Source: Acidimicrobiia bacterium (GTDB lineage Bacteria; Actinomycetota; Acidimicrobiia; Acidimicrobiales; Aldehydirespiratoraceae). From it: 40,837 bases of DNA. The notes under the pieces are model-generated. The model worked only from the letters and a program-made list of their open reading frames with translations. It did not search any database and was not told where the DNA came from. This document shows, piece by piece, positions 1 through 39,066 of this stretch (position 1 is its first letter; each line of letters starts with the position of its first letter). The DNA lies in NCBI GenBank assembly GCA_024421095.1, contig JAHQYM010000012.1, positions 1 to 40,837 of the forward strand, given 5' to 3'. The position numbers and the translations under genes were made by a program.

Positions 1-1004
1 GCTCGATCGAACTGCCGAGCGGAGACGCCGAAGTAACCACGATCTACTCCGGCACCGGCCCACTCGCCGATCCCGAAACCGAACAGCTATCGGAGATCAT
101 CGCCCGATTCAACGAACGCTTCGGCACGGACTGGACCAAAGAAGACCAACTCATGTTTCGAGCCGCCGCCGCAGACTTGGTCTCCGATATTGAGATTCAG
201 AACCAGGCAACCAACAACGACGAGGCCACGTTTCGCGACCATGTGTTCCCCGCGCGGTTCCAAGACGCACTGCTGTCACGCCTCGACCGCAACGACAAAC
301 TGGTCTTCAGCTATCTCGACAACAGCGAGTTGCAAGCCGCACTCATCGATGTGTTCGCCCCCGACGTGCAAAAACGTGCGACCGTCGCCCGACAACGAAC
401 CTGCCCGATCGGCGACCTGCTCGGACCCGACCGCGAGTCCCTCTACCTGGAATACAAATCCACGCTGCGCTGGGACATCAACGCACAGCGCAAAGGGGGC
501 GTTACCGAGGACACCGCCATCAAGACCATCGCCGGTTTCGCCAACTCCAGATTCGGTGGCACCCTGCTCATCGGCGTGGCCGACGACGGTTCCGTCCACG
601 GCTTGGAGGCCGACTACGCCACCTTCACCAAACGCGGCGAACGGGGCGACCAAGACCTATGGGGCCAACACCTGCAGAACCTCATCCGCTCCCGTCTCGG
701 CGATACCGCCCTGACGCTCGTCGACTGGGAGTTCCACACCGTGCGCGGAAAGCAACTCGCCCGCATCAGCATCGAACCGTCCGGCCATCCCATCTGTGAA
801 CGCAAAGGCGACCAAGAGATCTTCTGGAACCGCACCCCCACCTCCACAGTCTCCATCACCGATCCCGCCGAACGAGACAAGATCATCGCCCACCGCTGGC
901 ATCCCACCTCCCGGACATCCTCACCACATACCGCCAACCGCGGCACACACATACTCAAAACACCAAATACCAACCGCGCAACCAAACCAACGACAAAACA
1001 CTAG
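1..1004 (+). CDS. Type I restriction R-like C-terminus fused to an AlbA_2 (Schlafen-type) domain, 5' partial
   Basis: The reading frame is open from the left edge (first full codon at position 3) to TAG at 1002-1004, so only the C-terminal third or so of the protein is here. An ATG at 153 is internal. The first ~120 visible residues (FNERFGTDWTKEDQ, then helical Asp/Arg-rich text around FSYLDNSELQAAL) resemble the C-terminal helical region of HsdR-type restriction/translocase subunits. They are followed by an AlbA_2 putative DNA-binding domain: LEYKSTLRWD, then IAGFANSRFGGTLLIGVADDG and GLEADY. The fusion suggests a DNA-processing or defence protein; the motor domains would lie to the left. 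The last ~40 residues after DKIIAHRW are low-complexity (Thr/Pro/His) and coincide with the start of a 232-bp tandem duplication, so the natural end may have been altered. The HsdR assignment is from pattern memory and less certain than AlbA_2. Confidence 0.65.
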   Translation, partial: SIELPSGDAEVTTIYSGTGPLADPETEQLSEIIARFNERFGTDWTKEDQLMFRAAAADLVSDIEIQNQATNNDEATFRDHVFPARFQDALLSRLDRNDKLVFSYLDNSELQAALIDVFAPDVQKRATVARQRTCPIGDLLGPDRESLYLEYKSTLRWDINAQRKGGVTEDTAIKTIAGFANSRFGGTLLIGVADDGSVHGLEADYATFTKRGERGDQDLWGQHLQNLIRSRLGDTALTLVDWEFHTVRGKQLARISIEPSGHPICERKGDQEIFWNRTPTSTVSITDPAERDKIIAHRWHPTSRTSSPHTANRGTHILKTPNTNRATKPTTKH

Positions 1005-1328
1005 TTCGAGAACGCGCCGCCAGAAATATTGCCATCTCCACGCGGATTACAAGATCAGTGGGCCAGCAGCGCAACGGATCGCTGCCACAACCAACCTCGC
1101 CGAACGAGACAAGATCATCGCCCACCGCTGGCATCCCACTTCCCGGACATCCTCACCACATACCGCCAACCGCGGCACACACATACTCAAACCACCACCT
1201 ACCAACCCCGCAACCAAACCAACGACAAAACACTAGTTCGAGAACGTGCCACCAGAAATATTGCCATCTCCGCCCGGATTACGAGATCAGCGGGCCAGCA
1301 CCGCAACGGATCGCTGCCACAACCAACC
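865..1328. repeat. 232-bp direct tandem repeat, two copies, covering a gene 3' end
   Basis: Copy 1 spans about 865-1096 and copy 2 about 1097-1328. Corresponding landmarks are exactly 232 bp apart (GCCGAACGAGAC at 867 and 1099; AACCAACC at 1089 and 1321). Only scattered substitutions separate the copies. Each copy holds the last ~45 codons of the upstream gene with its TAG stop plus ~90 bp of downstream DNA. Copy 2 keeps the same tail frame open (AERDKIIAHRW to TKH then TAG at 1234-1236) but without a start. No terminal inverted repeats or transposase are visible. It looks like a segmental duplication. Confidence 0.9.
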
Positions 1329-1431: not shown

Positions 1432-2094
1432 CCCGAAGAGCAAATTGAACCAACGGAATCGCTTGTCACCAAGACCGCGAGGCCGGGTCGCCTAACAGCA
1501 GATGAGGTTTGCGACAGCGTCGGTCGGCGGGTTCGGGAACTGCGAGTTGGCATGGGTTTGACTATGGAGCAGTTTGCGGACGCTGCGGGCCTCTCCACAG
1601 GCATGCTCTCAAAAGTCGAACATGGCCAGACCTCACCGAGTTTCAGCACCTTGATTGCTCTTGCCGATGCTGCTGAAGTGCCCTTCACCGCTTTTTTTCG
1701 GGGGTTAGACGAGGAACGAGACGCAGTTGTAGTACCAGCGGGACAAGGCATGGAGATCATTCACGAAGGCGCTGGACCAGGGCGGGTTTACCGAGACTTG
1801 GGTTCATTGCGGGGCCCAACTCGTGAAATCGAGTCGCTTTATGTGACGATTACCGAACCAGACGAGGTGTTCCCGTTGTTCCAACATGGGGGTGTGGAGT
1901 TCATCTACATCCTTGAAGGTTGCGTTGAATACGGCTACGGCACCAAACGTTACCTACTTCAAACCGGGGATTCCATGCAATTTCGTGGTGAAGTCACCCA
2001 TGGCCCCACCGCGCTCATTGACCTTCCCCTACGGTTCCTTTCGCTGAAGGTGGCACCGCCTCCAGACCCCTCACCGACAAACTCAACCGCCTAA
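1429..2094 (+). CDS. XRE-family transcriptional regulator with C-terminal cupin domain
   Basis: 221 aa from GTG 1429; an upstream in-frame TTG at 1399 would add ten residues but has no ribosome site. Residues ~25-85 form an XRE helix-turn-helix (VRELRVGMGLTMEQFADAAG, then LSTGMLSKVEHGQTSPSFSTL). Residues ~140-205 are a cupin_2 barrel (FIYILEGCVEYGYGTKRYLL, then GDSMQFRGEVTHGP). This HTH-cupin layout is typical of small-molecule-responsive repressors such as the PuuR/SinR-like group; the ligand cannot be read from the sequence. The gene converges on the response regulator gene at 2091-2462, and the two stop codons share the bases CTAA (2091-2094). An internal Ser/Pro-rich tail follows the cupin. 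The partner operon and target promoter are unknown. Confidence 0.85.
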   Translation: MPEEQIEPTESLVTKTARPGRLTADEVCDSVGRRVRELRVGMGLTMEQFADAAGLSTGMLSKVEHGQTSPSFSTLIALADAAEVPFTAFFRGLDEERDAVVVPAGQGMEIIHEGAGPGRVYRDLGSLRGPTREIESLYVTITEPDEVFPLFQHGGVEFIYILEGCVEYGYGTKRYLLQTGDSMQFRGEVTHGPTALIDLPLRFLSLKVAPPPDPSPTNSTA

Positions 2095-2462
2095 GGCAGG
2101 TGTTTCCCGACCGCAGCCAACAGCACAGTGTTTTGGGCAGGTTTACGAAGCACCTCATCGGCACCCGCAGTGCTTGCCAACCCGATAGCGAACTCGGGGC
2201 TTTGGTGCATTCCCCCAGCCGACAAAGCCACAATACCGCCATGAGGCCACGCCCAACGCAAAGCCTTGATGTACTCCAACACTGTCATCGTGGGCATCAA
2301 AGCTTCGGTCACCACCACGTCTGGTTTCACCGAGGCCATCAGCTTCAATGCCATCTCAGCGCCGTTCGCTTCGATCACCTCATGGCCTTGAGCCACCGCA
2401 AACAAGCGCGTGAAACCGAAGCGCACGTTTGGGTCGTCGTCTGCCACCAACACTGTTGCCAT
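2091..2462 (-). CDS. Single-domain receiver protein with Glu at the phospho-acceptor site
   Basis: 123 aa, a stand-alone CheY-like receiver with no output domain. The acidic pocket is present (DDD at residues 8-10), as are the conserved Ser (VALSAGG) and the Lys-Pro pair (LRKP). The residue expected to be the phosphorylated Asp is Glu53 in the stretch VVVTEALMP; the codon is GAA, read from TTC at 2304-2306. In the family this position is normally Asp, and Glu often mimics the active state. The gene follows the histidine-kinase-like gene by three bases and is surely co-transcribed with it. Its 3' end overlaps the stop of the convergent XRE-cupin gene. It may act as a constitutively on, or phosphorylation-independent, protein partner; this is inference. 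Confidence 0.8.
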   Translation of the reverse strand: MATVLVADDDPNVRFGFTRLFAVAQGHEVIEANGAEMALKLMASVKPDVVVTEALMPTMTVLEYIKALRWAWPHGGIVALSAGGMHQSPEFAIGLASTAGADEVLRKPAQNTVLLAAVGKHLP

Positions 2463-2465
2463 GCT

Positions 2466-3485
2466 TCACACTCCCTCGCCACTTTCTGGTTGATAACGAG
2501 GAATGAGGACTTCAAAAGTTGAGCCCTCATCAACCACCGAGGTTGCATGGATCACACCTGACCAGCGATGGGCTTGTTCATAGGCAATGGTGAGCCCCAA
2601 ACCCGTAGCACCTTCAGCCGACTTGGTGGTGAAGAACGGATCGAACACTTGCTCGCACACGTCTTCGCTCATACCGCTGCCAACATCAGCCACGGTAACA
2701 CAGAAAAATGTGCCAGCCGAAACACCTTTCTTGCGCGCTTCGGGTTCGTTGAACACGTGAGACGAAAACCCCACCACAACCTCATCGCCAGGTTCGCTGG
2801 CTTGCACCGCATTGGTCAACAAAACCGTGAACACCGAATCGAAATCTTCGTGGTTGACCTTGATGGTGCCGCCATCTTCGACAAATCGGGTGGTGATAGC
2901 AACCTCATTGCCGAGCGAGTTCTGCACCTGCGAAACCACCCGAGACAAACCTTGCGACAAGTCGATCTCGGTAGCTTCACCTAAACCACCCGTGGGGTTC
3001 GCCAAGGAACTCTCCAAGATTTTGCAACCACGTTCGGCCACCAAACGAATGCGCTGCAAATTCTCATTGGGGGTAACAGCGCTATTTTCTTGTTCAAGTT
3101 CTAACTGCGACAAGGTAACAATCGGTTGGAGAACATTGTTGAGTTCTCGGGTGAGACCGCCAGCGAGCTGGCCCAACGCCGCCATCTTGTAAGCCTCACC
3201 GATTTGTTCTTCCATCGCTTTACGGTCTTCAATCGCTTTGTTGAGCTGCCCCACGGTCTGCGCCAAACGGTCGTTGAGATGGGTCACTTCTAGCCAACGC
3301 CGCACCGCAAACCACGAGGTCACCAACGCTAGAGTTGGCACAGCAGCGAGCAACTCAACGAACACGAAACCTTCACGGTTATCCGTGTAGTCGGCAACTG
3401 TCTGATACAAGTCGATGCTGACAAAGAAGAAAAAGATGACAATGCAGGCGATCGCACCGAAAATCATGTCTCTTCGAGCACTCAT
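2466..3485 (-). CDS. Membrane histidine-kinase-like protein lacking the acceptor His
   Basis: 339 aa. There are two membrane segments (~7-27 and ~40-61) with a short loop, a coiled-coil linker (~65-100), a dimerisation-like helix pair and an ATPase domain. The NtrB-type H-box reads AALGQLAGGLTRELNNVLQ, where the family has GG(I/L)AHDFNN. Residue 113 is Arg (CGA, from TCG at 3147-3149) instead of the phosphorylated His. The ATP-binding boxes look intact: N box LLTNAVQAS (Asn225), G1 DVGSGM (Asp267), F box FDPFFTTKS and G2 ATGLGLTI. AAGGAGT lies a few bases before the ATG, a strong ribosome site. It is the first gene of a pair with the Glu-substituted receiver at 2091-2462, so both phosphotransfer residues are missing. 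It could be a pseudokinase, or use another donor or acceptor. Confidence 0.85.
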   Translation of the reverse strand: MSARRDMIFGAIACIVIFFFFVSIDLYQTVADYTDNREGFVFVELLAAVPTLALVTSWFAVRRWLEVTHLNDRLAQTVGQLNKAIEDRKAMEEQIGEAYKMAALGQLAGGLTRELNNVLQPIVTLSQLELEQENSAVTPNENLQRIRLVAERGCKILESSLANPTGGLGEATEIDLSQGLSRVVSQVQNSLGNEVAITTRFVEDGGTIKVNHEDFDSVFTVLLTNAVQASEPGDEVVVGFSSHVFNEPEARKKGVSAGTFFCVTVADVGSGMSEDVCEQVFDPFFTTKSAEGATGLGLTIAYEQAHRWSGVIHATSVVDEGSTFEVLIPRYQPESGEGV

Positions 3486-3496
3486 ATTTACTCCTT

Positions 3497-3544
3497 CACT
3501 TTCTTCAAAGACAACAGTGGCACTTTCTTCGAGGACTATAGTGG
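3497..3544. repeat. 24-bp imperfect tandem repeat upstream of the kinase-like gene
   Basis: Unit 1 (3497-3520) and unit 2 (3521-3544) both begin CACTTTCTTC and end AGTGG. They agree at 20 of 24 positions. Each unit has CACT at one end and AGTG at the other, so each could bind a dimeric regulator. The pair fills the gap between the pyrE-like stop and the kinase-like ribosome site. Confidence 0.75.
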
Positions 3545-5067: not shown

Positions 5068-6342
5068 TTAGGTTAATGCATCGGTAATCAACTGAGCGTT
5101 GGTTCGCATAAAACCAAGATAGTCTTCGGCACCACTCCCCGCCGGGCCGAGACTGCCGGTATACAGCGTTACCACTTCAACGGCTCCGACTCGTGCGGCT
5201 AGCACCTCGGCATCATCGCTGTTGTGCAGGTTTTCCGCGAATATTGCCGGCACGCCTTCATGCTCGATCACCTCAGCAAGTTCAGCCAACTGGGCCGGGT
5301 TGGTTTCTGCCATCGTGCTAGTTGAGGGGATTACCGTTCCGACAATTTCAAATTCGTAGCGATCTGCGAAATAAGCCAAAGCGTCGTGGTTGGTGATGAG
5401 TTTGCGGTTGCTTTCAGGGATTTGCCCGAGCAACGCGGAAATCTCGGCATCAAGAGAATCGAGTTCGGACGAATAGTCGTTCAAGCAAGACGCCACTGCA
5501 TCGCTGTCAAGCCCAACGTGTTCAACTGCGAGTTGTTGTAGTTCCGAAAGCGTTTCTTTGACGCGTTGCGGATCGAACCAAACATGTGGGTCCCCAGCTT
5601 CGTGGCCGTGGTCGTCCACTTCCCCTCCTGTTTCCTCGTGGCCGTGGTCGTCCTCGTCCACTGCGTCGTGGTCTTGACCGTCCACCTCCGATTCGTCGTG
5701 ACCGGCTTCCTCGACATCCTCTTCAGCTTCGTGATCGTGACCGTCCTCCTCCACTTCCTCTTCAGCTTCGTGGCCGGGGTCGTCCACGTCCCCTCCTGTT
5801 TCCTCGTGGCCGTGACCGGATTCCTCTGCTGCCGCCTCGTGGCCATGACCGTCCACCTCCTCTGCTGCCTCTTCCGCACCGTGGCCGTGGGCACCGGACT
5901 CTGTTCCGGTCAAGACGGTGCTCGCATGTTCAGCCGCTCTAAACACTGGCGTACCGTTTTGCTCAACTGCAATGAGCGTGTCTTCAAGACGCTCTTCGAG
6001 ACCTAACCCATTAGCCACTACCAGAGCAGCATTCTCCATGCGTTCACGGTCTTGCAGCGAGGGTTCGTAATTGTGGGGATCACCGCCATCTGGGATTAGC
6101 GTTGCAACATTGATGTCTCCGCTACAAAGCACGTTAGAGACGATGTCTGACCAAATTCCCGTCGTCACCAGAACTGTTGGTTTCGCGGCACCAGTACTCG
6201 CCGCGGTGCCTTCTTGTTGTGTTGCATCGCCACAAGCAGAAACCAGCAAAGACAGCGCCGCTAGGTTCGCTGCAATAACCAAGATTGTTTTCTTGCGTGA
6301 TACGCGGTGGAGCCGTTTGGGGACGACTTTGAATTGTTTCAT
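5068..6342 (-). CDS. znuA: Zinc-binding lipoprotein of ABC transporter with long His/acid-rich loop
   Basis: 424 aa from ATG 6342 (AAAGG lies about nine bases upstream; an in-frame upstream start at 6372 would run into the Zur box and is not preferred). Lipoprotein signal with lipobox LVSAC at ~35-39. Cluster A-I fold landmarks: VTTGIWSDIVSNVL, GGDPHNYEPSLQD (first His ligand), GDPHVWFDP (second), ITNHDALAYFADRYEFEIVG (third) and IFAENLHN. Between the first and second ligands lies a ~105-residue linker with 15 His in GHGHE/GHDHE units separated by Asp/Glu runs, encoded at about 5586-5900 by a degenerate DNA repeat. Such loops capture or buffer zinc outside the cell. This linker is unusually long and itself internally duplicated (HGHEETGG occurs twice). 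It is transcribed divergently from zur with a Zur box between. Confidence 0.92.
   Translation of the reverse strand: MKQFKVVPKRLHRVSRKKTILVIAANLAALSLLVSACGDATQQEGTAASTGAAKPTVLVTTGIWSDIVSNVLCSGDINVATLIPDGGDPHNYEPSLQDRERMENAALVVANGLGLEERLEDTLIAVEQNGTPVFRAAEHASTVLTGTESGAHGHGAEEAAEEVDGHGHEAAAEESGHGHEETGGDVDDPGHEAEEEVEEDGHDHEAEEDVEEAGHDESEVDGQDHDAVDEDDHGHEETGGEVDDHGHEAGDPHVWFDPQRVKETLSELQQLAVEHVGLDSDAVASCLNDYSSELDSLDAEISALLGQIPESNRKLITNHDALAYFADRYEFEIVGTVIPSTSTMAETNPAQLAELAEVIEHEGVPAIFAENLHNSDDAEVLAARVGAVEVVTLYTGSLGPAGSGAEDYLGFMRTNAQLITDALT
5586..5900. repeat. Degenerate repeat encoding the His/Glu/Asp-rich ZnuA linker
   Basis: The + strand shows repeated GTGGCCGTGGTCGTCC-like units (near 5603, 5640, 5810 and 5848). 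On the coding strand these give GHGHE/DHGHEE motifs. The segment coding EETGG-x-VDD-x-GHEA appears twice. The periodicity also opens long spurious frames on the + strand, which are not genes. Confidence 0.75.
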
Positions 6343-6379
6343 GTCTAATAACCTTTCGCTAATTGAGCACAAGTGCTTC

Positions 6380-36562: not shown

Positions 36563-37231
36563 ATGAAAGTTCTGCTTGTCGAAGACGACCAACGGTTGGC
36601 AACCTCGCTGCGACACGGTCTCGAAGCCGAAGGTTTCTCTGTCGACACGGTGCATGACGGCCTTGACGGCTTATGGCGGGCGCGTGAAGGGATTTATGCT
36701 GCAATCGTTTTAGACATCATGTTGGGGGGCATGAACGGCTACGAGATCTGCCGAACTTTACGCTCCGAAGACAACTGGGTACCGATTCTGATGCTCACCG
36801 CTAAGGATGGCGAATACGACGAAGCCGACGGCCTCGACCTCGGTGCTGATGACTACCTGCGCAAACCCTGCTCGCTGGTAGTGCTTGTGGCTCGATTGCA
36901 CACTCTGATGCGACGGGCCCAAGCTCAACCCGCAATGGATTTGCAGGTCGGCAACTTGAGCCTCAACCCGAACACTCGCCGTTGTCGGCGTGGCGATGTT
37001 GAGATCGAACTCACGGCGCGCGAATTGCTCGTGCTGCACACCTTGATGAACCGGGCACCCGACGTGGTTCCCAAACAGGAACTACTGCACGCGGTGTGGG
37101 GTTTCGATTTCAAAGGCGACCCGAACATTGTGGAGGTTTACATCGGCTACCTGCGGCGCAAGATCGACCGACCTTTCGACACACGCTCAATCCGCACCGT
37201 GCGTGGTGTCGGGTATCAACTAACCCGATGA
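36563..37231 (+). CDS. OmpR/PhoB-family response regulator
   Basis: 222 aa. Receiver domain: acidic pair Glu7-Asp8-Asp9, phospho-acceptor Asp51 in IVLDIMLGGMNGYE, Thr in MLTAKD, Lys in LRKPCS. Winged-helix output domain (~125-222: EIELTARELLVLHTLMNRAPDVVPKQELLHAVWG, then NIVEVYIGYLRRKIDRPFDTRSIRTVRGVGYQL). Unlike the receiver at 2091-2462, all phosphorylation residues are standard. No ribosome site precedes ATG 36563, which may be leaderless. Its TGA overlaps the ATG of the first of three mini-ORFs (ATGA, 37228-37231), which in turn lead to the sensor kinase. Confidence 0.93.
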   Translation: MKVLLVEDDQRLATSLRHGLEAEGFSVDTVHDGLDGLWRAREGIYAAIVLDIMLGGMNGYEICRTLRSEDNWVPILMLTAKDGEYDEADGLDLGADDYLRKPCSLVVLVARLHTLMRRAQAQPAMDLQVGNLSLNPNTRRCRRGDVEIELTARELLVLHTLMNRAPDVVPKQELLHAVWGFDFKGDPNIVEVYIGYLRRKIDRPFDTRSIRTVRGVGYQLTR

Positions 37232-37308
37232 ACTGGATTTGGGCACCTGCGCGGCTGCGGCGGGTCAACTTCGGTAACCGATTGCGGCAACCAAGGCCCA
37301 CACCATGA
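37228..37308 (+). CDS. Mini-ORF 1 (26 aa) linking regulator to the array
   Basis: Starts at the ATG that overlaps the regulator stop and ends at a TGA overlapping the ATG of copy 2. The peptide opens MNWIWAPARLRRVNFGNRL and is Trp/Arg-rich, like the N-terminus of the kinase. It has no ribosome site of its own; AAGG (37293-37296) near its end serves the next start. It is probably a by-product of duplication but is positioned to be translated by reinitiation. Confidence 0.5.
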   Translation: MNWIWAPARLRRVNFGNRLRQPRPTP

Positions 37309-37379
37309 ACTGGAATTGGACACCTCTGCGGCTGCGTGGCGGCACCGCTGATCCGCGCATCGCCGCGGACACACCATGA
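37305..37379 (+). CDS. Mini-ORF 2 (24 aa)
   Basis: Opens MNWNWTPLRLRGGTADP and ends TP before a TGA overlapping the next ATG. The sequence after residue 10 differs from copies 1 and 3, so this copy is older or was replaced in part. AAGG lies eight bases upstream of its ATG. Confidence 0.45.
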   Translation: MNWNWTPLRLRGGTADPRIAADTP

Positions 37380-37456
37380 ACTGGAATTGGACACCTGCGC
37401 GGCTGCGGCGGGTCAACTTCGGTAACCGATTGCGGCAACCAAGGCCCACACCATGA
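37376..37456 (+). CDS. Mini-ORF 3 (26 aa)
   Basis: Opens MNWNWTPARLRRVNFGNRL and differs from mini-ORF 1 at only two residues (Asn4 and Thr6 in place of Ile and Ala). Its TGA overlaps the kinase ATG at 37453. AAGG at 37441-37444, inside its own end, is eight bases before the kinase start and probably serves as its ribosome site. Confidence 0.5.
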   Translation: MNWNWTPARLRRVNFGNRLRQPRPTP

Positions 37457-39066
37457 ACTGGAATTGGACACCTGCGCGGCTGCGGCGGCTACCTCGGTTG
37501 ACCGTGCGTGTACGCATGACCATGCTGGTTGGGGCGGCCGCGATTTTGGTGCTGGTGCCGGCAACCGTGTTTGGGCCCAACTGGGTTGAGCAGGCGCTCG
37601 TTGATGATGTCTTCGACGACGAAGCAGCTTTGCAAGCCGAACTGATTGAACCTCTAGTCGGCCTGATGCGCCAATACGTTGTCGATGATGCAAATGCGAT
37701 TGATGCCGCCCAGTCCGCTGGCAGTGTTTCATTCGCGGCTGATGCAAGACGGCGTGTCTTTGATGCTTTGACCGACCTTGACAATCTCGGCCATCTTGAT
37801 GCCTTATTGCAAGCCACCGAAACCAGCCGGGAGTCGGGGGTGCCGGTGGCGATGAGCGACGGCGCACTGTTGGCGTTTCCGCTCGACAACCACAACGCAC
37901 CTTCGCGGCTTGATTTTGCTGACTTGAATTCTCCGGTTATTAGTGTGTTCAACTTGTTTGACCTCGCCTTCAGGGTGCTTGGTGTCGAGTTGCCGAAGGT
38001 AGAGACCGCCATCAGCGAGTTGGGTACCACAGCCGAAACAGCGAGTGCAGATGCGCTCTTTGTTGGTCAGTCGGTCGCTTTTGCTACTCGCACTTTTGGC
38101 GGAACTGATTTCGTGGTTAGCGCCGATATCAGCAATGTGAACCGCAGCATCAGCCGGGTGGAAGCGATCTTGTGGCGGGTCATCCCGTTGACGATCATCG
38201 TGCAGGTGCTGGTGGCTTGGAAGTTGATCGGGAGGGCGCTGCGCCCAGTTGAGCAAATCACTGCGGAGGTGCGCGAGATTAACGCTGGAACCCTCAGCGA
38301 ACGGGTGGCGGAACCCGGGACAGGTGACGAGATCGACAGATTGGCGGTCACTATGAACATCATGCTGAACCGTTTAGAGGGTAGCGACAACAAACTGCGC
38401 CAATTCGTTTCGGATGCTTCTCACGAACTCAGAACCCCGGTAGCGGTGTTGCACAGTGACGCTGAGGTTGCCTTGCGCCAGCCGGCTCAGACTGAAGTTG
38501 AGGTTCTTGCTTCGGGAGTGCTATTCGAAGCTAAGCGATTGCAGCGCATAGTCGATGACCTGCTGGTTTTGGTTCGCCATGATGAACACCGCAGTTTGTC
38601 GCCGTCTGTGCCGGTCGACCTTGACGAAGTGATTTGGGAGGAGGCGGCGCGCAGTCGTGAGGTGGCGGTGGATGTTGGGGCGGTCTCTGCGGGTAGAGTC
38701 AGTGGTACCCCTGAATCACTGAAGCGCATCGTTGCGCACCTACTTGACAACGCCGCCCACTACGCGAGTGAGCGTATTGCCGTGCGTTTGACCACGCAAG
38801 CGGATTCAAGTTCAACTCTCACCCAAGCCAGAGAAACGGTGTTGACAATAGATGATGACGGCCCGGGTATCGCCGAGGCTGACCGTGAACGAATTTTCGA
38901 ACGTTTCACGCGCCTGTCTGAAGCGCGCAGCCGCGATAGTGGTGGTGCGGGTTTGGGTTTAGCCGTTGTGAAGGCTTTGGTGACGGAACTAAACGGGAAC
39001 ATTGTCGTTGCGGATTCCCCTTTGGGCGGTGCCAGATTTATCGTCACCTTCCCTCGCTATGAGTAA
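37453..39066 (+). CDS. Sensor histidine kinase with HAMP domain
   Basis: 537 aa. Cytosolic Arg-rich lead (MNWNWTPARLRRLPRLTVRV), TM1 (~23-41), an extracytoplasmic sensor region of ~195 residues with many acidic residues, TM2 (~239-259), HAMP (~257-310), HisKA with FVSDASHELRTPVAVLHSD (acceptor His324) and HATPase_c with LLDNAAHYA (N box), DDDGPGIAEADRERIFERF (G1/F boxes) and GGAGLGLAVVKALV (G2). An intact orthodox kinase, partner of the regulator at 36563-37231. Its natural start would once have overlapped the regulator's stop directly; three extra copies of the start region now separate them. It converges on the HNH gene (39120). Confidence 0.93.
   Translation: MNWNWTPARLRRLPRLTVRVRMTMLVGAAAILVLVPATVFGPNWVEQALVDDVFDDEAALQAELIEPLVGLMRQYVVDDANAIDAAQSAGSVSFAADARRRVFDALTDLDNLGHLDALLQATETSRESGVPVAMSDGALLAFPLDNHNAPSRLDFADLNSPVISVFNLFDLAFRVLGVELPKVETAISELGTTAETASADALFVGQSVAFATRTFGGTDFVVSADISNVNRSISRVEAILWRVIPLTIIVQVLVAWKLIGRALRPVEQITAEVREINAGTLSERVAEPGTGDEIDRLAVTMNIMLNRLEGSDNKLRQFVSDASHELRTPVAVLHSDAEVALRQPAQTEVEVLASGVLFEAKRLQRIVDDLLVLVRHDEHRSLSPSVPVDLDEVIWEEAARSREVAVDVGAVSAGRVSGTPESLKRIVAHLLDNAAHYASERIAVRLTTQADSSSTLTQARETVLTIDDDGPGIAEADRERIFERFTRLSEARSRDSGGAGLGLAVVKALVTELNGNIVVADSPLGGARFIVTFPRYE

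What the first reader, a model, noticed from the sequence alone, without database searches (positions are those of the whole stretch)
2091..3485. Two-component pair in which both phosphotransfer residues are replaced
Seen: the kinase-like protein has Arg113 where the H-box His belongs (GGLTRELNN) but intact ATP-binding boxes. The receiver encoded three bases downstream has Glu53 in place of the phospho-Asp (VVVTEALMP). Known: Glu at this position often mimics phosphorylation, and pseudokinases can signal by conformation. That both partners lost the acceptor together suggests co-evolution to a phosphate-independent switch rather than random decay. The open frames, good ribosome site and preserved N, G1, F and G2 boxes argue against pseudogenes.
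Basis: partly seen in the sequence, partly recalled or inferred. Interest (0 to 1): 0.78.

Follow-up and report, generated by a model that had tools for sequence, protein, structure and literature searches.

The report
Conserved kinase–receiver pair lacking phosphotransfer residues
A bacterial sensor and its partner protein, normally wired together by passing a phosphate from a histidine to an aspartate, have both lost those two residues, yet five related species keep the same replacements (arginine and glutamate) under selection, so the pair probably signals by shape and binding rather than by phosphate.

Summary
On the minus strand, a 339-aa two-TM histidine-kinase-like protein (2466-3485) has Arg113 at the phospho-His position. 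A 123-aa stand-alone receiver three bases downstream (2091-2462) has Glu53 at the phospho-Asp position. Four orthologous gene pairs exist, all in the same genus of Acidimicrobiaceae MAGs (kinase 64-68% identical). All keep Arg and Glu, the ATP-binding boxes, the receiver's acidic pocket, Ser81 and Lys107, and the TGA-plus-one-codon junction. Codons at both sites vary synonymously, and dN/dS is about 0.12-0.18 (kinase) and 0.07-0.27 (receiver). Decay and sequencing error are therefore excluded. More distant kinase relatives all have His. The Arg motif occurs nowhere else in 396 genomes of the phylum. A sixth genome of the genus lacks the pair, probably by loss. Each half belongs to a known kind: pseudo-histidine kinase (like DivL) and aspartate-less receiver. 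A conserved operon with both partners degenerate was not found in the papers searched. Best reading: a membrane pseudokinase controls a phosphate-independent receiver by regulated binding; an Arg-Glu contact at the old phosphotransfer point is plausible but untested. No intermediates survive, so coupled loss is not proven.

The parts
2466..3485 (-). Pseudo-histidine kinase, 339 aa: two TM helices with a short loop (about 8-60), coiled linker (62-100), DHp with Arg113 in place of the phospho-His, CA domain with intact N/G1/F/G2 boxes
3147..3149 (-). Arg113 codon (CGA; CGG in the four orthologues) at the phospho-His position
2091..2462 (-). [quoted passage not shown] D8/D9, S81 and K107 retained; nearly invariant block 76-109 (SAGGMHQSPEFA...GADEVLRKPA)
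2304..2306 (-). Glu53 codon (GAA; GAA or GAG in orthologues) at the phospho-Asp position
2463..2468 (-). Gene junction: kinase stop TGA plus one codon, then the receiver start codon in the same frame; the same layout in all five genomes, with a purine-rich ribosome site inside the kinase's 3' end
3497..3544 (.). Two tandem copies (83% alike) of a 24-nt unit just upstream of the kinase start, in the short gap after the phosphoribosyltransferase gene; not evident upstream of the orthologues

Best explanation
A conserved 'double-pseudo' two-component pair. The membrane-anchored pseudokinase senses something through its two TM helices and short loop, binds ATP in an intact CA domain, and changes the shape of its DHp bundle, but cannot phosphorylate itself at residue 113. 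The co-translated single-domain receiver, frozen by Glu53 in one pocket state, docks on the DHp where a normal receiver would. The kinase's conformation decides whether the receiver is held at the membrane or released to act on another protein, probably through its nearly invariant beta4-alpha4-beta5 face. Arg113 and Glu53 would face each other at the former phosphotransfer point and could form a salt bridge. Shown: both substitutions, their joint conservation, intact ATP motifs, purifying selection, operon layout. Inferred: absence of catalysis, docking, salt bridge, release model, output.
For: Arg113 and Glu53 invariant in 5/5 genomes with synonymous codon change. dN/dS 0.12-0.18 and 0.07-0.27. 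ATP boxes and the receiver pocket residues D8, D9, S81, K107 invariant. Kinase conservation is highest in TM (0.70), linker (0.82) and DHp alpha1 (0.72), lower in CA (0.52), as a conformational relay would require; receiver block 76-109 is 31/34 invariant against 48/89 elsewhere, Fisher p 1e-4, best-window shuffle 7/5000. The pair stays together with a 3-nt gap while neighbours change. Precedent: DivL (Tyr at the His site) binds DivK through the normal docking surface without kinase or phosphatase activity (PMC4211667).
Against: No binding, nucleotide or phosphorylation data. The AF2 model of the cytoplasmic kinase plus receiver (in frame, TGA read as Gly) had pLDDT 59 and pTM 0.47, so docking could not be judged. 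The receiver has no output domain, and no constant neighbour gene names a target. Keeping a full ATP site could instead mean some other catalytic act. The aromatic switch position is Val104, so classical Y-T coupling is absent.
Confidence: 0.55

Rival explanations
1. The two proteins work on other two-component systems rather than as a closed pair: the pseudo-receiver occupies the docking site of an intact kinase and blocks it (as Osp or FixT do), and the pseudokinase acts as the membrane sensor or anchor that controls this inhibitor (DivL-like network).
For: Osp and FixT are single-domain receivers that inhibit kinases without being phosphorylated (PMC9430884). The genomes hold several other receivers, six besides this one in the window's genome. 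The receiver has no output domain.
Against: No intact kinase or regulator stays next to the pair; the canonical pair in this window is not conserved in the genus at E 1e-60 while the pseudo pair is.
Confidence: 0.25
2. Chemistry is kept with other residues: Arg113 is phosphorylated on its guanidino group and passes phosphate to Glu53 as glutamyl phosphate.
For: All ATP-binding and receiver pocket residues are retained, so the machinery for phosphotransfer is otherwise complete; N-P to acyl-P chemistry would be conserved in type.
Against: No HisKA-type kinase is known (to my knowledge) to phosphorylate Arg; Asp-to-Glu receivers are regarded as non-phosphorylated.
Confidence: 0.03
3. An alternative His in the kinase is the phosphoacceptor and the receiver is phosphorylated elsewhere or serves as a non-accepting partner.
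For: H69 and H306 are invariant.
Against: H69 lies in the linker 44 residues before the DHp site and H306 in the CA domain; no His at all lies in the DHp helices; the receiver lacks the Asp in all five.
Confidence: 0.04
4. Degenerating pseudogenes or a sequencing error.
For: One genome of the genus lacks the pair, so it is dispensable.
Against: Same residues in five separate assemblies, synonymous change at both codons, dN/dS well below 1, open frames.
Confidence: 0.02
5. Function is mainly expression-controlled: a constitutively 'on' receiver whose dose is set by transcription, with the kinase acting as a membrane tether only.
For: Constitutively active pseudo-receivers regulated by supply are discussed in PMC12632262. 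A tandem 24-nt repeat sits in the short upstream region.
Against: Invariant ATP boxes would be unnecessary in a tether. The repeat is not seen upstream of orthologues.
Confidence: 0.11

Closest known systems
DivL (Caulobacter pseudo-histidine kinase, Tyr550 at the His site)
   Same: HisKA-type kinase with the phospho-His replaced and DHp-CA fold retained; the DivL crystal chain 4q20 is hit by the kinase profile (E 4e-6)
   Different: DivL has PAS sensors, carries Tyr, and binds a normal phosphorylatable receiver (DivK~P); here Arg, two TM helices, and a partner that also lost its site
CckA transmitter domain (PDB 5idj)
   Same: Closest solved relative of the DHp-CA region (E 1e-25)
   Different: CckA is an active hybrid kinase with His
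Aspartate-less receivers / pseudo-receivers with Glu (ALR; e.g. ChxR)
   Same: Glu at the phospho-Asp position, the commonest ALR substitution (26%, PMC4395418)
   Different: The characterised ARRs are enriched for orphans (PMC12632262) and ChxR carries a DNA-binding domain; this one is single-domain, keeps both acidic residues, Ser and Lys, and is paired with a pseudokinase
Osp and FixT single-domain receivers
   Same: Stand-alone receiver-like proteins acting without phosphorylation by binding a kinase (PMC9430884)
   Different: They inhibit active kinases; Osp keeps Asp but lacks the acidic pair and Lys, the reverse of this protein

Membership tests
Active HisKA-type histidine kinase | His in the H-box of the DHp domain | tested here: not met
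   Arg113 in 5/5; aligned to CckA His; Pfam HisKA not found
Active HisKA-type histidine kinase | N, G1, F, G2 boxes of HATPase_c | tested here: met
Pseudo-histidine kinase (DivL kind) | HK fold with the phosphoacceptor replaced, conserved under selection | tested here: met
Pseudo-histidine kinase (DivL kind) | No autokinase activity but partner binding | not testable with these tools
   needs biochemistry
Receiver domain PF00072 | Receiver fold/profile match | tested here: met
   E 8.9e-15; natural solved receivers E down to 1e-12
Canonical phosphorylatable receiver | Asp at the end of beta3 | tested here: not met
   Glu53 in 5/5
Aspartate-less receiver (ALR) / pseudo-receiver | PF00072 match with Asp replaced | tested here: met
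   definition PMC4395418, PMC12632262
Aspartate-less receiver (ALR) / pseudo-receiver | Phosphorylation-independent action | not testable with these tools
   no functional data
Cognate HK-RR operon pair | Adjacent, same strand, co-conserved genes | tested here: met
   3-nt gap and same order in 5/5
Cognate HK-RR operon pair | Direct binding of the two proteins | tested here: inconclusive
   AF2 model of the joined cytoplasmic parts too poor (pLDDT 59)

The most novel reading that the evidence does not exclude
A two-component pair in which both partners jointly abandoned phosphotransfer and replaced the His-Asp chemistry by a fixed Arg-Glu ionic contact at the same spot, turning the kinase-receiver complex into an ATP- and membrane-gated binding switch.
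Probability: 0.25. Interest if true: 0.78.

Novelty: new variant of a known kind. Interest (0 to 1): 0.58.

Why it matters
How pseudo-receivers are switched is described as an open question (PMC12632262), and the characterised ones are mostly orphans. Here a pseudo-receiver comes with an obvious, co-conserved pseudokinase, so its input partner can be tested directly, and charge-swap mutants can ask whether a kinase-receiver pair can signal with no phosphate at all.

Tried and rejected
Pseudogene/decay: rejected by dN/dS and joint conservation. Alternative DHp His: none conserved. A broader Arg-variant family: not found in 395 class genomes by profile, nor by the motif in 396 phylum genomes, nor in viral contigs. 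Direct derivation of the receiver from the receiver domain of a hybrid kinase: its similarity to hybrid receivers is weak (best about 3e-8), so its origin is unresolved. Kinase tree: the pseudokinases form one clade (100/100) on a long stem, sister to a small group of His-bearing kinases with 96/84 support, but long branches make the placement unsure. Function by neighbours: the cupin-HTH gene is found in only three of six genomes of the genus, so no steady partner. Structure: the joined cytoplasmic model had low confidence and was not searched further. The two-TM module was compared with relatives: one weak match (E 0.0015) to a GGDEF-EAL protein, one spurious. A literature search for pairs with both sites lost returned none, but the library lacks most subscription journals.

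Full report
Observation. Pfam finds HATPase_c but not HisKA in the first, and Response_reg in the second. The profile alignment with the CckA transmitter (5idj, E 1e-25) puts Arg113 on the phospho-His; the ATP-binding boxes are whole. The receiver has D8/D9, S81 and K107 but Glu53 where its homologues have Asp. As an in-window control, the pair at 36563-39066 is canonical (VSDASHELRTP; IVLDIMLGG), with HisKA found at E 1e-11.

Orthologues. Four orthologous pairs were found, all in the same genus (Acidimicrobiaceae/Acidimicrobiia MAGs VXYK01000014.1, JAPOYA010000013.1, JAPPMP010000008.1, JAHQYN010000022.1). In every one the kinase has GGL(T/V)RELNN and is followed, after TGA and one codon, by a receiver with VVVTEA(x)MP. 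Synonymous changes at the two codons (CGA/CGG, GAA/GAG) and dN/dS of 0.12-0.18 (kinase) and 0.07-0.27 (receiver; the highest value is from one near-identical pair, and values against the window gene rest on nearly saturated dS) show purifying selection. The sixth genome of the genus lacks both genes. On a single-gene tree it groups with a genome that has them (92/93), which suggests loss there, although that assembly is only 93% complete.

Outside the genus. Profile searches of 395 genomes of the class give only larger, mostly hybrid kinases, and every H-box that could be read has His. The pattern GG-x-x-R-[DE]-x-NN occurs in no other genus among 396 genomes of the phylum. All other receivers collected have Asp. 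Published base rates are 0.9% of HisKA domains without His and 2.0% of receivers without Asp (PMC12632262). With independence, a doubly degenerate pair would be about 2 in 10,000. But there is one evolutionary origin here, so joint conservation shows maintenance, not coupled origin.

Anatomy and mechanism. Conservation is strongest in the TM region, linker and DHp alpha1 of the kinase and in residues 76-109 of the receiver (31/34 invariant against 48/89, p 1e-4). The ATP site is kept though the phosphoacceptor is gone. The simplest account is a conformational relay: membrane input and nucleotide state set the DHp shape, which decides whether the frozen receiver is bound or free. In kinase-receiver complexes the His and Asp face each other (general knowledge; the DivL-DivK model in PMC4211667, uses this geometry), so Arg113 and Glu53 would meet there; a salt bridge is an inference. 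I tried to test docking with an AF2 model of linker-DHp-CA joined in frame to the receiver, but it was of low confidence.

Comparison. Each half is a known kind: a pseudo-histidine kinase (DivL) and a Glu-type aspartate-less receiver. What is unusual is that both halves are degenerate in one conserved operon. I found no described case in the searched library, which is incomplete. I therefore rate it a new variant of a known kind. The origin of the receiver, its target and the signal are unknown.

Noticed in passing
window 2463-2468 and the same junction in L024-L027: The kinase stop is TGA in all five genomes and the receiver follows in the same frame after one codon, so TGA read-through would give a hybrid-kinase-like fusion. 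Ordinary re-initiation is more likely, given purine-rich ribosome sites and start codons.
   Followed up: partly
window 853-1316: Tandem duplication of 232 nt (93% alike) covering the 3' end of a Schlafen/AlbA_2 gene and downstream DNA.
   Followed up: partly
window 3497-3544: Two tandem 24-nt repeats (83% alike) directly upstream of the kinase gene; possible regulator site.
   Followed up: partly
window 5068-6372 (-), repeats about 5696-5871: ZnuA-like binding protein with a His/Asp/Glu-rich low-complexity insert encoded by 33-39-nt repeats, next to an ABC-3 permease, a Zur/Fur-like gene and an ABC ATPase.
   Followed up: no
window 36563-39066: The canonical response regulator/HAMP kinase pair in this window has only one relative (40% identity) in the genus at E 1e-60, so the degenerate pair is better conserved than the intact one.
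   Followed up: partly
L025 6500-10600, L026 6570-10400: Downstream of the pair in relatives lie a cupin-HTH regulator, a glutamine-synthetase-like gene and glutamine amidotransferase/GXGXG-like genes; only the cupin-HTH gene is next to the pair in the window.
   Followed up: no
receiver residues 81-92 (window about 2187-2222, minus strand): The beta4-alpha4 loop (SAGGMHQSPEFA) is about four residues longer than in CheY-like receivers and is invariant; a candidate interaction site.
   Followed up: partly
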